A program made the position numbers and the translations under genes. 64,000 nt of DNA from Tsuneonella mangrovi (GTDB taxonomy: Bacteria; Pseudomonadota; Alphaproteobacteria; Sphingomonadales; Sphingomonadaceae), in the NCBI RefSeq assembly GCF_002269345.1, contig NZ_CP022889.1, positions 2,522,501 to 2,586,500 of the forward strand. Direction: 5' to 3'. Of this stretch, positions 1,561-58,335 are shown in pieces. Positions within the stretch are counted from its first letter, which is position 1. The number at the start of each line of letters is the position of its first letter. Under the pieces are notes generated by a model. It made no database searches and was not told where the DNA came from. It saw nothing but the letters and a program-made list of their open reading frames with translations.

Positions 1561-4500
1561 CTATTCGGCGGCCATCAGTTCGGCTTGCCCGAGATCGACG
1601 CTGACCAGGCGGCTGATACCCTTCTCGACCATCGTTACTCCGAACAACCGGTGCATCCGGCTCATCGTCACTGCGTTATGTGTCACGATCAGGTAGCGGG
1701 TCTGGGTCTCGGCAACCATCGAATCGAGCAGGTCGCAGAAGCGATCGATGTTGGCATCGTCGAGCGGCGCGTCGACTTCGTCGAGCACGCAGATCGGCGC
1801 GGGGTTGGTCAGGAACAGCGCGAAGATCAGCGCAGTTGCCGTCAGGGCCTGTTCGCCGCCCGAGAGCAAAGTGAGCGATTGCAGGCGCTTGCCAGGCGGT
1901 TGTGCGAAGATTTCGAGGCCGGCTTCGAGTGGATCGTCGCTGTCGATCAGCGCGAGGTGGGCTTCGCCGCCTTCGAACAGGCGGGTGAACAGGCGGCGGA
2001 AGTGGGTGTTCACTTCCTCGAACGCGGCACGCAGCCGCTCGCGCCCTTCGCGATTGAGGCTGCCGATCGATCCGCGCAGGCGAGCGACTGCTTCGGTCAG
2101 TTCGGCTTGCTCTTCGGCACTGGCACCATGTTCGGCCTCAATCCGTTCGAGCTCCTCCGCGGCGACGAGATTGACCGGCCCGATCCGTTCGCGGCTGGCG
2201 ATCATCCGGTCGAGTTCTTCGGATTCGACGGGCGACTGCTTGACCGTTTCGTCATCGAACCCGAGCCGTTCGCCAAGCAGTTGCGGTGGGCACTGGAACC
2301 GTTCGCCGGAAACGCGCGCCATTTCCTCGCGGCGTTGCTCTTCGTTCTCGGCCCGGGCGGCGAGCCCGGCGCGGCCTTCACGGGCGGCGGCAAGCGCTTC
2401 GGTCGCGTCGGCCAGCGCACGATCAGCGGCTTGCGCGGTCTCGTTCGCTTTCGCGACCGCCTGTTCGGCTTCGGCAAGGTCTTCGGTCAGCCGCGCGCGA
2501 ACGGTATCGCCTTGTTCGATCTCGCGCATCAACCCTTCGGGCTTGGCAGCAACGACCGCGCGCTCTTCTTCGATCTCTTCAAACCGGCGTGCCATTTCGC
2601 TCAGTCGGCGGGCGGCATCGCCCGAACGCGCTTTCCAGCTGGCGATATCGCTGCGCTGCGCGGCGGTGCGTTCGCGCGCGACTGCCAGCGCCTGATCGTG
2701 AGCGGCGAGCTCCGCCGTAGCCGCTTGCAGGGTCTCGCGCGCGGCCTCGCTCTTGGCTTGCGCCGCATCGCGCGCTGCCCGTCCGACATCGGGCGAAGGG
2801 AGCGCGGCGCGCTTGTCTTGCGCGGTGGCGAGTTCTGCTGCGGCGGTTTCGCGCTGTTCGGCAAGGTCAGTCGCGGCGGCTTCGAGCTCGCTGAGCCGCG
2901 CTGCGTGGCGTTCGCATGCCGCTTCTGCCTGGTCGAGCGCACGCAGCGCGTGGCGTTCCGCCTCGGCGGCATCCTGCATTGAACGCTCGTCGGCGACCAG
3001 TTCACGCTGGAGCGCGGCGAGTTCGTCTTGCGCGGTAGCGTGCGCCTTCTCCGCCTCCGCCGCGGCTTCACGGCGAGGCGACAGCTGGGCGGACAGCTCG
3101 ACCAGTCGGTTTTCGGCTTCGAGGCGCGCTGCCTCCGCCGCCCCTTCGCCGCGCGCGACGAATCCGTCCCACCTGCGCAACGCACCGTTGCGTGTGACGA
3201 GCCATTCGCCCGGATCGAGCGCACGACCGTCGTCGCTCTCGGCAAAATGGACCAGCGCCAGTCGGGCTGCGAGTTGCGGGGGGCAATCGGTGACGTGTGC
3301 TGCAAGGCTGCCCGCAACCGGCGGCGGCGCGTCGGAACCGGTCCAGTAGCGGCCTTCGGCATCGTTCGAGGGAGCGCCGAGCGGAGCCCTCGCATCGCGC
3401 CCCAGCACGGCGGCGAGTGCGCGTTCATAGCCTGCCTCTGCGCGAACTTTGTCGAGCGCGGCGGGTAGGCCCTGACGGTTCGCCGCCTGCTTCGCGCGGG
3501 CTTGCCGGTCGCGTTCGAGTGCAGTGTGTTCGCGTTCCAGTCCGGCGAGTTCGGCGCGCGCGGAAGATAAAGCGTTTGCGGCCTCGTCGCGAGCGGCCTG
3601 TAGCGCTTCCTTGCGGGAGCGCTTGGTATCGAGCGCTTCCCTGAGGCTCTCGAGCCGCTCGCTCGCTTCGGTAGACGCGCGCTGTGCGGCTTCCACCGAT
3701 GCGGCGGGATCGCCCGACGCGGTGAGCGAGGCACGCATTTCCACCTGTCGCCGCGCTTCGCTGTCGAGGCGCGCGAGACGGCTTTCCGCCTGAGCCACTT
3801 CGGCTTCGGCCACCCGCCACTCGGCTTCGACCCCGGCGTGTTGCGCGGTCGCGTTGGCAAGCGCCAGTTCGGCAGCGCGCGCGGCGCGGTCGGTATCTTC
3901 CAGCCTTGCGGCAAGCGCCGGGCGACGTTCCTGGTCGACGGCGAGTTTCGCCTCGCTTTCGGCCAGCTCCTTCTCCAACCGTGCGAGCGCTTCCGCGGCA
4001 TCGCTGGTCAGCCGGTCGGCATCGCCGCGATCGGCCTCGAGCTGGGCCTTCTGCCGGTCGAGATCGGCAAGGCGCTGTTCGGCGGCTTCGAGCTGGCCGG
4101 TCAGCGCTGCCATCCGGTGTCCGTGCGCGCTGGCATCGTCGCGCCGGTCGGCGAGTTCATCGCGCACTTCTGCCAGCACACCGGCTGCTGCTGCCTGGGC
4201 CCTTTGTGCGGCGGTAACCCCGTCCTGCGCGGTGGCAACCCTGTCGTTGGCTCCTTGTGCTTCCTTGCGGGCGACTTCGGCGGCAGCGGCAGCGTCGCGC
4301 CAGCGGGCAAACAGCAGCCGCCCCTCGGCGACGCGAATCTGGTCCGAGAGCAGCTTGTAGCGTTCGGCCTGCTTGGCCTGGCGGCGCAGCGAAGCGATTT
4401 GGCTATCGAGCCCCGCCAACAAGTCTTCGAGCCGGGCGAGGTTGGCTTCGGTTTGGCGCAGCTTGCTCTCGGCATCGCGGCGGCGGACGTGAAGCCCAGC

Positions 4501-54813: not shown

Positions 54814-55344
54814 CTAGTGTTCCGGACCCAAAGCCGGGTCGAGGTCGCGCGGGCGGGCAAAGTGGACCAGCTTGCCGCAGTCCTTGCCGAGGTTCGCCCA
54901 GTCGTCGATCGCCAGCTCGAGCACTGCGAAGGTCGCGGTCGGGAATTTGACCGCTGCTTCATCGAACAGGGCATTCTCGTTCTCGGGCGGGACCAGCGCG
55001 AACAGCAGGTCCTGCAAGCCCGGGTTGTGGCCCGCCAGCAGCACCGCCTGGGCATCGCCGCCGTGATCGCGCAGCGCCTCCATCAGGGTATCTGCATCGG
55101 CGAGGTAGATCCGGCTATCGAACTTCGGTTCGATTTCGGGAAGTGCAGCGGCGAGGGTCAGCTTGACCCGCTCGGCCGGGCTGGCGAGCAACTTGCTCCA
55201 TCTTACTCCGTGGTCGCGGATATGATCGCCGATCAGCTTGGCGCCGCGCCGCCCGCGATCGTTGAGCCCGCGATCGAAATCGCGCGTGCCCATGTCGTCC
55301 CAATCGGATTTGGCATGGCGCAGGAGGCCGAGCAGCTTGGGCAG
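54814..55344 (-). CDS. SixA-like histidine phosphatase with apparent CTG start
   Basis: 176 residues if started at CTG 55344. Phosphohistidine phosphatase family: LLGLLRHAKSDWDD (catalytic Arg9-His10), RDFDRGLNDRG, the conserved SPAERV and second catalytic His106 in LLAGHNPGL. The next ATG (55293) would remove the catalytic RH motif. The stop codon of the upstream helicase (55351-55353) is in the same frame six bases before the CTG, so no ATG, GTG or TTG can start a complete enzyme. AAGGA lies 8-9 bases upstream of the CTG. SixA trims phosphate from Hpt domains in E. coli. Confidence 0.75.
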   Translation of the reverse strand: MPKLLGLLRHAKSDWDDMGTRDFDRGLNDRGRRGAKLIGDHIRDHGVRWSKLLASPAERVKLTLAAALPEIEPKFDSRIYLADADTLMEALRDHGGDAQAVLLAGHNPGLQDLLFALVPPENENALFDEAAVKFPTATFAVLELAIDDWANLGKDCGKLVHFARPRDLDPALGPEH

Positions 55345-55350
55345 GTCAAG

Positions 55351-58092
55351 TCATCCTTCGAGCGGGGATGCCGTAGCGTCGGCACCGTCTGGCTTTGCGA
55401 AAACACTGTTGGCGAGCCGTTGTAAAGCCTCCTCCAGTGTCAATCTGATGACCGGGGTGCCGGACGGGAAGGCTGACAGCAGCCGGCTGGGGAACGCGGG
55501 AGAGAGCACCACGAAGTGGCCGGCATCGTCGCGGCTGCGGATCAGGCGGCCGAAAGCCTGTGCCAGTCGCGCGCGGATGATCCGGTCATCATAGGCATTG
55601 CCGCCTCCCCCAGATTCAGCTGCTGCGGCACGCCGCGCGCGGTGGAGGATCGTCGGGCGCGGCCACGGGACCTGCTCCAGCACCACGCAGCGCAGCGAAT
55701 GGCCCGGCACATCGACCCCGTCGCGCAACGCGTCGGTACCAAGGAGGGATGCGGTGGGATCGTCGCGGAAGATATCGACCAGCGTGCCGGTGTCGATCGG
55801 ATCGACGTGCTGGGCGTAGAGTGGCAGTCCGCTACGTGCGAGCCGGTCGGCGATCCGGCCGTGAACCGCGCGCATCCGGCGGATCGCGGTAAACAGGCCC
55901 AGGACGCCGCCACCGCAGGCCTCGATGATCCGCCCGTATGCCCCGGCGAGCGCGGGAATATCGCCCTTGCGGATATCGGTCACGATCAGCACCTCGGCGC
56001 GATTGGCATAGTCGAACGGGCTCTCCGCTTCGCTCAGCAGCGCAGATGTGTCGAGGTGCGTCGCCCCGCTGCGGGCGATTGCCGCGTCCCAGTCCTCGCT
56101 GTCCTTCAGCGTCGCGCTGGTCAGCATTACTCCGTGTGCGGGTTCGAGCACGACTTTCGCGAATGGCTTCATCGGATCGAGCCAGTGGCGGTGGAGCCCG
56201 ATGTCGAATTCTCGGGCTTCGTTGCGATCGACTGCGAGCCAGTCGACGAACTCGGGGTCGCCCGGGCCGCCCAGCCGGTCGAGCAGCGCCTCCCACGCCG
56301 CCAGCAGGTCACATCGCCAGCCGAGCGAATGTCTCGCGCCCTCGATCCGCGCGCGGCCCTGCGCGTCGAGCCAGTCGGGCGGATCGGCGAGGATAGCTTC
56401 GAGCCGCCCGCCAAGGCGCAGCAGCGGGGACCGGATCGCGGACAGCGCACCGGCGGCTTGTCCGGCCAGTTCGACCACCGGTCCGTCGAGACCCGCCGCT
56501 TCGGTCTCGATGCCGTATCCCGCTTCCTGCCCACCGCTCTCGTCGCGGGCGTAAGTGACCGCGCGCACCGCGCCCAGCAACGCCTCGAGCGGGCCGGCGG
56601 GCACACCTTCGTTGAGGCGCTGCAGCCAGCCTTCGGAGGGCAACGAATGCGCTGCCTCCACCGCCGCTTCGATCGCGGTGCCGCCCGCTTCGTCATAACT
56701 GGCAACATCTGCAAGCCGCGCGGCGAGGCCACGGCGGCGGCCCTTGTGCGACTTCTCCGGGCCGACGATCCAGCGGCGCAACTCGATCGCCTCGGCCCCG
56801 GTGAGTGCAGCGGCAAAAGTGCTGTCGGCGGCTTCGAAAACGTGGTGACCCTCGTCGAAAACCACCCGCGTTGGGCGCTGGGCATGGTCTCTCCCACGCG
56901 CCGCGTTGACCATTACCAGTGCATGGTTGGCGATCACCAGGTCGGCTTGGGCGGAAGCGCGTGCGGCGTGTTCGATGAAGCATTTGCGATAGTGCGGGCA
57001 CCCGGCATAGACGCACTCTCCGCGCTGATCGGTGAGCGCGGCGATCCCGCGCTTGCGGAACAGCGGGCCGAGCCAGCCGGGCAGGTCGCCGCCGATCATA
57101 TCGCCGTCTTGCGAAAAGGCCGCCCAGCGCGCAACCAGCTGCGCCAGCACCGCAGGGCGACCGGCGAACCCGCCTTGCAATGCGTCTTCGAGGTTGAGCA
57201 GGCAAAGGTAGTTCTCGCGTCCCTTGCGCACCACCACCGGGCGGCTGCCGTCGAGGCGCGTGGGCGGCCATGCACGGGCGCTTTCCTGCCGAAGCTGGCG
57301 CTGCAGGTTCTTGGTGAAGGTGGAGACCCATACCGTCCCGCCCGAACGCTCCGCCCACAGCGAAGCTGGCGCGAGATAGCCCAGCGTCTTGCCGATCCCG
57401 GTCCCGGCCTGCGCGAGCAACAAGTGCGGGACATCACGCCGATCGCGCGGGGCGAAGACCTTGCCAGCTTCCCTGGCGTAGCGGCGCTGGCCTTCGCGGC
57501 GCTCAGCGCCTTCACCGGTCAGCCGTTCGAGCCGAGCTTCGACTTCGGGTTCCTCGATAAGCGCGTGGCCGGGCTGGGCCCGCTCGGGCGTTTCCTCCCA
57601 TTCTGGCAAGCGGGCGAACAGCCACTTCTCGGCGCGTTCGGGCCTGCGGATATGCGGGCCCAGGATCTGCGCCCACGGCCAGCGCAGTCGCACCAGCGAT
57701 TGCAGCGTGGACCACGCGCCTTCGCGTTCGGCCCAGTCTTCGCTTTCGCAAGTGGCCAGCAAATGCCCTGCGGCGAGCTGGAGGAATGCGGGCACGCCGT
57801 CGTCGCTTTCGGGTTCGGCGAGGCCCAGCGCATGGGCCAGCCCGCGCGGGGTTGGCACCGCGAACTTCGCCGGATGAATGAAGGCGAACAATTCCAGCAG
57901 GTCCAGCCCCGAGAGGTCGGGATAGCCGAGACGATTGGCCACCAGCGGGGCATTGAGGATCAACTGCGGCGTATCGGCCACCGCCATCACCGCTTCGCCC
58001 TTGCTTGCCCCGCGCGTGTTGCCGTTGGCATCGCGCAGCCATGTCCCGGCGTGGCTGGCATGAAGGGCAGGGAGAGGGAGTGGTTCGGGCAT
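55351..58092 (-). CDS. DinG/XPD-type ATP-dependent DNA helicase
   Basis: 913 residues. SF2 helicase with Walker A GTGIGKT (230-236), an FeS-cluster site with Cys297 (YLCLLN), 360, 365 and 371 (CVYAGCPHYRKC), and DEGHH (413-417) as motif II. Later motifs include VMLTSATLKDSEDW and LGTDALRDGVDVPGHSLRCVVLEQVPWPRP and AFGRLIRSRDDAGH. An N-terminal domain of about 200 residues is unlike E. coli DinG. It would unwind forked or R-loop DNA. ATG 58092; its stop is six bases before the phosphatase CTG, so the two are coupled. Confidence 0.92.
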   Translation of the reverse strand: MPEPLPLPALHASHAGTWLRDANGNTRGASKGEAVMAVADTPQLILNAPLVANRLGYPDLSGLDLLELFAFIHPAKFAVPTPRGLAHALGLAEPESDDGVPAFLQLAAGHLLATCESEDWAEREGAWSTLQSLVRLRWPWAQILGPHIRRPERAEKWLFARLPEWEETPERAQPGHALIEEPEVEARLERLTGEGAERREGQRRYAREAGKVFAPRDRRDVPHLLLAQAGTGIGKTLGYLAPASLWAERSGGTVWVSTFTKNLQRQLRQESARAWPPTRLDGSRPVVVRKGRENYLCLLNLEDALQGGFAGRPAVLAQLVARWAAFSQDGDMIGGDLPGWLGPLFRKRGIAALTDQRGECVYAGCPHYRKCFIEHAARASAQADLVIANHALVMVNAARGRDHAQRPTRVVFDEGHHVFEAADSTFAAALTGAEAIELRRWIVGPEKSHKGRRRGLAARLADVASYDEAGGTAIEAAVEAAHSLPSEGWLQRLNEGVPAGPLEALLGAVRAVTYARDESGGQEAGYGIETEAAGLDGPVVELAGQAAGALSAIRSPLLRLGGRLEAILADPPDWLDAQGRARIEGARHSLGWRCDLLAAWEALLDRLGGPGDPEFVDWLAVDRNEAREFDIGLHRHWLDPMKPFAKVVLEPAHGVMLTSATLKDSEDWDAAIARSGATHLDTSALLSEAESPFDYANRAEVLIVTDIRKGDIPALAGAYGRIIEACGGGVLGLFTAIRRMRAVHGRIADRLARSGLPLYAQHVDPIDTGTLVDIFRDDPTASLLGTDALRDGVDVPGHSLRCVVLEQVPWPRPTILHRARRAAAAESGGGGNAYDDRIIRARLAQAFGRLIRSRDDAGHFVVLSPAFPSRLLSAFPSGTPVIRLTLEEALQRLANSVFAKPDGADATASPLEG

Positions 58093-58335
58093 CGAATCCC
58101 ACGATGGGCAAAGCGGAACGAAAAGTAAACGCGGCGGCCGACGTGGCAATGGCCACAATAGCTTGGCAGGCGATCGGCTTGACTCCCCGACAATCAAAGA
58201 GGACGGTCGGCGCAGTTCAGAACAACCCGAGTCGCGAGGGTCGCTTCACGAACGCCTGCATGGGCGGGCGTCGAGGCGCTTCGGCGCGCGCTGTGCGTGA
58301 TGGATGCGCGCAGCGAATGGGAGAGGAATCTGACG

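What the first reader, a model, noticed from the sequence alone, without database searches (positions are those of the whole stretch)
54814..55350. SixA-like phosphatase whose only complete reading uses a CTG start
The catalytic LLGLLRH segment is in frame, and the upstream helicase's TGA (55351-55353) is in that frame just before it. Between that stop and the catalytic His there is no ATG, GTG or TTG; the only plausible start is CTG at 55344, with AAGGA 8-9 bases upstream. Starting at the first ATG (55293) would delete Arg9-His10. Standard gene finders would truncate this gene. Alternatives are reinitiation after the helicase stop or a real but inactive product.
Basis: partly seen in the sequence, partly recalled or inferred. 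Interest (0 to 1): 0.6.

Follow-up and report, generated by a model that had tools for sequence, protein, structure and literature searches.

The report
Conserved CTG start in Tsuneonella phosphatase
A bacterial phosphatase gene appears to begin with the rare start codon CTG; the same CTG sits at the same place in six related species, so it is very likely real rather than an error, although no protein has been measured.

Summary
In detail: on the minus strand the helicase TGA (55353-55351) is in frame, no ATG, GTG or TTG precedes the catalytic Arg-His, and CTG 55344-55342 follows AAGGA by 9 nt. It is not an accident of one genome. Of 11 held species of the genus (inferred Tsuneonella), six have CTG at this codon, two GTG, and three GTG one codon later. 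Among 135 distinct loci examined, 129 have a usual start within four codons; the only six CTG starts are in this genus. Four of the six lack any usual alternative. Codons before the first internal ATG vary almost only synonymously at dS 0.7-0.9. Readthrough, +1 frameshift and internal ATG each fail in at least one species. The helicase stop overlaps the CTG or ends 1-6 nt before it, so initiation is probably coupled to helicase termination (inferred). CUG starts are known but rare; this one is kept across a genus. No protein evidence was available. Checking my control revealed a second gene in the same genome, an alpha/beta hydrolase, whose likely start is ATT in all 11 species.

The parts
54814..55344 (-). 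SixA-like histidine phosphatase gene read from CTG (176 aa plus stop TAG 54816-54814)
55342..55344 (-). CTG start codon, at the same codon in 6 of 11 genus members; GTG there in 2 more
55354..55358 (-). AAGGA Shine-Dalgarno-like site; its last base is followed by 9 nt before CTG. GGA-9 nt-CTG in all six CTG species by reading
55351..55353 (-). TGA stop of the upstream helicase, in frame with the phosphatase here
55351..58197 (-). upstream DinG/YoaA-like helicase ORF (mechanical TTG start)
   Evidence: Pfam Helicase_C_2 73.6 bits over its cut-off 25.3; NCBIfam YoaA 229.4 bits, below its cut-off 680
55315..55320 (-). catalytic Arg9-His10 codons (CGC CAT)
   Evidence: the H8A mutant of E. coli SixA is called the catalytic mutant in passages of PMC7948535
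55291..55293 (-). first usual in-frame start (ATG, residue 18); would delete strand 1 and the RH motif
55346..55354 (-). ATG-ACT-TGA in another frame, formed by GGA+TGA; basis of the +1 frameshift rival; absent in L007 and L008

Best explanation
The gene is a functional SixA-like histidine phosphatase whose translation begins at CTG 55344, decoded as formyl-Met. The ribosome site is AAGGA at the end of the helicase gene. Ribosomes ending helicase translation a few bases upstream probably supply much of the initiation (termination-reinitiation), which would let a weak start codon suffice. Shown by sequence: conservation of the CTG, absence of usual alternatives in four species, coding constraint upstream of the internal ATG, a near-constant Shine-Dalgarno position, and a complete predicted fold from this start. 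Inferred: that the codon is used in cells, the coupling, and phosphatase activity.
For: CTG at the same codon in the window and five other species at 76-78% protein identity to it, GTG there in two. No ATG/GTG/TTG between the upstream in-frame stop and RH in L001, L004, L005, L006. Codons +1 to +16 in eight species: nine columns vary synonymously, one changes the residue; dN 0.10-0.16 against dS 0.72-0.89 in seven pairs. GGA-9 nt-CTG in all six by reading. L008 has CTGA overlapping the helicase stop, the four-base overlap that 76 of 135 loci have at the usual start, and L113 has ATGACCAAG where L008 has CTGACCAAG. AlphaFold model from CTG: pLDDT 94.5, strand 1 = residues 3-9; best PDB match is putative SixA 2rfl. 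Helicase stop to CTG: 6 nt (L001, L005), 1 nt (L004, L006, L007), overlap (L008); passages of PMC10666635 report reinitiation at overlaps and very short distances.
Against: No protein or ribosome data. CUG complexes are reported as less stable than AUG/GUG/UUG (passage of PMC11497404). An in-frame CUG with an upstream SD in Caulobacter dnaA gave a toeprint but was not used in cells (passages of PMC8443254). L007 has an in-frame GTG 18 codons upstream and L008 one 109 codons upstream. The scored SD register differed in L006 and L008 (aligned spacing 4 and 10 against 7 in the other four). A 2-nt distance already lowered reinitiation by 5 to 70% in E. coli pairs, so at 6 nt initiation may rest on the SD alone.
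Confidence: 0.83

Rival explanations
1. Translation starts at the internal ATG (55293), giving a truncated, probably inactive protein; the gene is decaying.
For: It is the first usual start in the window, and L004-L007 have an ATG two codons later.
Against: The segment before it is conserved with almost only synonymous change; L008 has no usual start after CTG before codon 46; the product would lack strand 1 and Arg9-His10; the whole gene is under strong constraint.
Confidence: 0.04
2. Readthrough of the helicase TGA makes a helicase-phosphatase fusion.
For: In the window and L005 the TGA is in frame with the phosphatase.
Against: In L004, L006, L007 and L008 the helicase ends in a different frame, so readthrough cannot be the shared mechanism; the commonest arrangement is a four-base overlap in another frame (76 of 135).
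Confidence: 0.03
3. Initiation at ATG 55354 (ATG-ACT-TGA) followed by a +1 shift at the UGA into the phosphatase frame.
For: ATG-NNN-TGA occurs in L001, L004, L005 and L006 with the right spacing.
Against: L007 and L008 have no such ATG, the second codon is not conserved (ACT, ATC, ACC, AAG), and in L002/L003 the register differs. The ATG overlaps the SD.
Confidence: 0.03
4. Initiation at the next CTG (55335, residue 4).
For: That codon is CTG in six and TTG in two of the eight species.
Against: Leucine is encoded there in all eight and CTG is the commonest Leu codon of these genes (95 of 157 in the six CTG species). The SD would be at aligned spacing 16 in five of six and 13 in L006, against 9-10 in 35 of the 70 well-scored loci that start with GTG one codon later. 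It cuts into strand 1 and leaves the conserved (C/G)TG and (P/T)-Lys codons before it unexplained.
Confidence: 0.06
5. Sequencing or assembly error near the helicase stop removed a usual start.
For: Single-base changes at this spot could recreate an ATG overlap.
Against: Six genomes (G000, G003, G005, G006, G009, G010) carry the CTG with different flanking bases and three helicase-stop positions.
Confidence: 0.01

Closest known systems
Rare CUG start codons in bacteria
   Same: CTG preceded by a Shine-Dalgarno site and read as the start. Reconstructed switches to CUG are very rare: 2 of 61,358 AUG, 1 of 5,080 GUG and 1 of 2,468 UUG ancestral starts (passage of PMC5622118).
   Different: Here the CUG is kept in six species of one genus and present in both basal branches of its gene tree, rather than being a single recent switch.
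Termination-reinitiation gene pairs (ATGA/GTGA overlaps)
   Same: Helicase stop and phosphatase start overlap or lie 1-6 nt apart in the CTG species; 76 of 135 loci have the four-base overlap.
   Different: The start codon is CTG; dependence on helicase translation has not been tested.
SixA phosphohistidine phosphatase (PDB 2rfl, 1ujb)
   Same: Fold (TM 0.77/0.87 to 2rfl_E, 0.73/0.82 to 1ujb) and the R-H, R, H active-site residues.
   Different: NCBIfam sixA equivalog score 28.3 is below its cut-off 74.5; substrate unknown.

Membership tests
Histidine phosphatase superfamily, branch 1 (PF00300) | Pfam gathering score | tested here: met
   30.3 bits against 21.7
Histidine phosphatase superfamily, branch 1 (PF00300) | catalytic Arg-His near the N terminus, second Arg, second His | tested here: met
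   R9, H10, R59, H106 invariant in 19 aligned proteins; H8 of E. coli SixA as the catalytic residue from passages of PMC7948535, the other three recalled
SixA equivalog (TIGR00249) | NCBIfam equivalog cut-off | tested here: not met
   28.3 against 74.5 bits
SixA equivalog (TIGR00249) | SixA fold | tested here: met
   AlphaFold model; Foldseek hits 2rfl, 4hbz and 1ujb among the best ten
SixA equivalog (TIGR00249) | phosphohistidine phosphatase activity | not testable with these tools
   needs an assay
Bacterial CUG-initiated gene | no usual start that could give the full protein | tested here: met
   window and L004-L006 have none; L007 and L008 have only GTG 18 and 109 codons upstream, inside the helicase
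Bacterial CUG-initiated gene | CTG position conserved or replaced only by other start codons in near relatives | tested here: met
   CTG 6, GTG 2 of the 8 genus members with this register; the other 3 of 11 use GTG one codon later
Bacterial CUG-initiated gene | N-terminal formyl-Met peptide encoded from CTG | not testable with these tools
   no proteomics available
Termination-reinitiation coupled pair | stop and start overlap or lie a few bases apart | tested here: met
   6 nt, 1 nt or overlap in the six CTG species
Termination-reinitiation coupled pair | downstream translation depends on upstream translation | not testable with these tools
   needs reporter constructs

The most novel reading that the evidence does not exclude
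The CTG is selected, not merely tolerated: a deliberately weak start usable mainly by ribosomes that have just finished the helicase, so phosphatase dose is tied to helicase translation and possibly to initiation-factor levels. Together with the likely ATT start of an alpha/beta hydrolase in the same 11 species, it would mean that this genus keeps non-canonical starts as regulatory devices over its whole history.
Probability: 0.2. Interest if true: 0.65.

Novelty: new member of a known kind. Interest (0 to 1): 0.45.

Why it matters
With ATG, GTG and TTG only, the protein of four of the six CTG species would be started 17 or 19 residues too late and lose the active-site histidine, so an intact enzyme would look dead. 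The genus offers a natural series (CTG, GTG at the same codon, GTG one codon later; overlap, 1-nt and 6-nt spacings) with which the cost of a CUG start and its dependence on termination-reinitiation can be measured directly.

Tried and rejected
Readthrough, +1 frameshift, internal ATG, next CTG and sequence error were each considered and rejected for the reasons given under rivals.

Altered initiator tRNA as the cause: the tRNA-Met gene taken as initiator is identical over 77 of 77 bases in seven genomes, among them CTG users (G003, G005, G006) and GTG users (G001, G002, G007, G008), and 97% identical in G010 (CTG). In G000, G004 and G009 only a 21-base partial match was found. 5S rRNA is missing from the same three, while G000 yields 43 tRNA matches, not typed one by one. 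I take this as missing or masked rrn sequence in the held copies; the initiator tRNA of the window's own genome is untested.

RNA structure at the start: nothing beyond shuffles (z 0.45; the second sequence in that call was a useless 10-base stretch).

Genome control: the first attempts were dominated by wrong-frame ORFs and are not used for counts. (261 reciprocal pairs; 0.8 Mb of 2.70 Mb of G000 against 1.6 Mb of 2.79 Mb of G003) still contains some wrong-frame pairs. Of 58 pairs with five or more aligned columns ahead of the first usual start, four have at least 80% identity there: this gene (16 of 17, 4 synonymous) and three with 1 synonymous difference each. The looser rule of 10 identical residues and 3 synonymous differences gives 12 of 261: this gene, the hydrolase with the likely ATT start, and ten that I did not examine (their identity there is 26 to 64%). 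So I no longer hold that this gene is the only one of its kind in the sample.

Literature: nine searches, of which I saw titles and the starts of abstracts of the capped lists; none of those listed is about this gene, and one search found no paper holding both 'Tsuneonella' and 'start codon'. No search was made for ATT starts of hydrolases. The all-64-codon paper of Hecht et al. is not held.

Full report
The observation. On the minus strand the sequence reads GAA GGA TGA CTT GAC CTG CCC AAG CTG CTC GGC CTC CTG CGC CAT. The TGA at 55353-55351 ends the upstream helicase ORF and is in frame with the phosphatase. Between it and the catalytic CGC CAT there is no ATG, GTG or TTG. CTG is at 55344-55342, 9 nt after AAGGA. 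An ORF list with the three usual starts begins only at ATG 55293.

What the gene is. The reading scores above the Pfam threshold for the histidine phosphatase superfamily (30.3 against 21.7) but below the NCBIfam SixA equivalog cut-off (28.3 against 74.5). The AlphaFold model built on 19 sequences has mean pLDDT 94.5 and its first strand is residues 3-9 counted from CTG. Its best PDB matches are the putative SixA proteins 2rfl and 4hbz, with SixA 1ujb in the first ten; 2rfl also matches by sequence (E 8.8e-18). R9, H10, R59 and H106 are invariant in the 19 proteins. The H8A mutant of E. coli SixA is described as a catalytic mutant (passages of PMC7948535). I therefore call it SixA-like.

Relatives. 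All 11 held genomes of the genus have one match each. Six of the 11 (L001 = window, L004-L008) have CTG at the same codon, two (L002, L003) have GTG there, and three (L011, L012, L015) have GTG-AAG one codon later. I examined 146 loci, 135 distinct, mostly of the same family, out of a larger set (54 of 60 genomes matched, 284 of 298, 55 loci), chosen mostly from the best matches. By register they fall as GTG one codon later 77, ATG one codon later 34, TTG one codon later 10, CTG 6, GTG at the codon 3, ATG at it 2, TTG at it 1, other 2. L120 and L125 have CTG directly before a GTG start and are counted as GTG. Two loci (L089, L102) are out of register and have ATG four codons later; the two 'other' (L082, L141) have TTG or GTG three codons upstream. 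So 129 of 135 have a usual start within four codons of this place, and the six CTG starts are all in this genus.

Why the CTG is the start. In L001, L004, L005 and L006 no usual start exists between the upstream in-frame stop and the RH motif. L007 has an in-frame GTG 18 codons upstream and L008 one 109 codons upstream, inside the helicase. Across eight species the 16 codons after this position contain nine columns that vary only synonymously and one that changes the residue (P/T), while the two codons before it vary in sequence and would-be residue. dS between species is 0.72-0.89 and dN 0.10-0.16 in seven pairs. GGA stands 9 nt before CTG in all six by reading. My scored register gave aligned spacing 7 in four, 4 in L006 and 10 in L008; among the 70 well-scored loci with GTG one codon later 35 lie at 9-10; the next CTG would lie at 16 in five and 13 in one. 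In L008 the sequence is CTGACCAAG, the CTG overlapping the helicase TGA, where a species of another genus (L113) has ATGACCAAG.

History. In a tree of helicase plus phosphatase (21 loci) the genus is monophyletic (ultrafast bootstrap 99). CTG occurs in both basal branches; the three species with GTG one codon later form one clade (100). One gain with two losses and two gains with one loss both cost three steps, and several inner nodes are weak (50-62), so the number of origins is open.

How it probably works. In the six CTG species the helicase stop is 6 nt before the CTG (L001, L005), 1 nt before it (L004, L006, L007) or overlaps it (L008). The commonest arrangement among the 135 loci is a four-base overlap (76). 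Passages of PMC10666635 report reinitiation at overlaps and very short distances, already lowered by 5 to 70% at 2 nt in three E. coli pairs, by 40-80% at 14 nt and almost abolished by about 20-38 nt. I infer that ribosomes ending on the helicase initiate at CTG with help from the AAGGA site; at 6 nt the SD alone may do it. This is not shown.

Rivals. Readthrough fails because only L001 and L005 of the six have the helicase stop in frame. A +1 shift from ATG-NNN-TGA fails because L007 and L008 lack that ATG. The internal ATG fails because the upstream codons are constrained and L008 has no usual start from CTG to codon 46. Error fails because six genomes agree.

How unusual. A published reconstruction found four switches to CUG among 68,906 ancestral starts, the sum of three classes (passage of PMC5622118). 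A structural paper states that CUG complexes are less stable and that CUG is not a common bacterial start (passages of PMC11497404). In mycobacterial reporters CTG was not enriched (passage of PMC4633059). In Caulobacter dnaA a CUG with an SD was not used in cells (passages of PMC8443254), a caution against trusting a CTG from one genome. The initiator tRNA does not distinguish CTG from GTG users where it could be read.

The control, and what it turned up. In 261 ortholog pairs from parts of two genomes, this gene was the only one with ten or more residues at 80% identity and three or more synonymous differences ahead of its first usual start. Rechecking the rows below that line showed that the rule hid a second case. 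An alpha/beta hydrolase gene (L155 5437-6495; PF12146, 109.9 bits) has no ATG, GTG or TTG before codon 83 in the window's genome. All 11 genus members have ATT in the same alignment column. Before it stands GGAG at 7 nt, preceded by a conserved CTTACCAAANNGTAACCA (for ten loci; for L321's genome). That exact pattern with ATTAG occurs once in all seven genus members and in three other genera among 298 family genomes, and its backward control in none. A conserved AUU start is the likely reading. The alternative is that ATTAG belongs to a DNA control element and translation starts at another non-canonical codon. Ten other rows of the looser list were not examined.

Verdict. A real, conserved CTG start, very likely used; a rare but known kind of thing, in an ordinary enzyme gene. 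What would settle it is a single N-terminal peptide.

Noticed in passing
L155 5437-6495, + strand (G000:C1:2345437-2346495); ATT at L155 5527-5529: Alpha/beta hydrolase (PF12146) with no ATG/GTG/TTG before codon 83 in the window's genome; ATT sits in the same alignment column in all 11 genus members, 7 nt after GGAG and behind a conserved operator-like CTTACCAAANNGTAACCA. The exact site also occurs in three other genera of 96 sampled (10 of 298 genomes in all). Likely a conserved AUU start, perhaps more striking than the finding given.
   Followed up: partly
135 loci, e.g. window 55342-55353: A DinG/YoaA-like helicase and a SixA-like phosphatase gene are adjacent in most loci examined, with a four-base stop/start overlap in 76 of 135, suggesting a coupled pair of unknown joint function.
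   Followed up: partly
G000, G004, G009 (window's genome and two others): No 5S rRNA and no full-length initiator tRNA found in the held sequence, while 43 tRNA matches occur in G000; probably a missing or masked rrn operon.
   Followed up: partly
L228 1472-1548: The genus's initiator tRNA has an A-U pair where E. coli has the first of three G-C pairs of the anticodon stem (the E. coli comparison and the naming as initiator are recalled); identical in CTG and GTG users.
   Followed up: partly
L152 about 3890-3892 (G000:C1:2283890-2283892): An in-frame TAG is followed directly by codons conserved with G003 (14 of 16 residues, 7 synonymous differences), and the G003 ORF continues about 186 codons upstream; possible interrupted gene in the window's genome.
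   Followed up: no
L082 and L141: Only usual phosphatase start is three codons upstream of the common position (TTG and GTG), showing that the start drifts among these loci.
   Followed up: no
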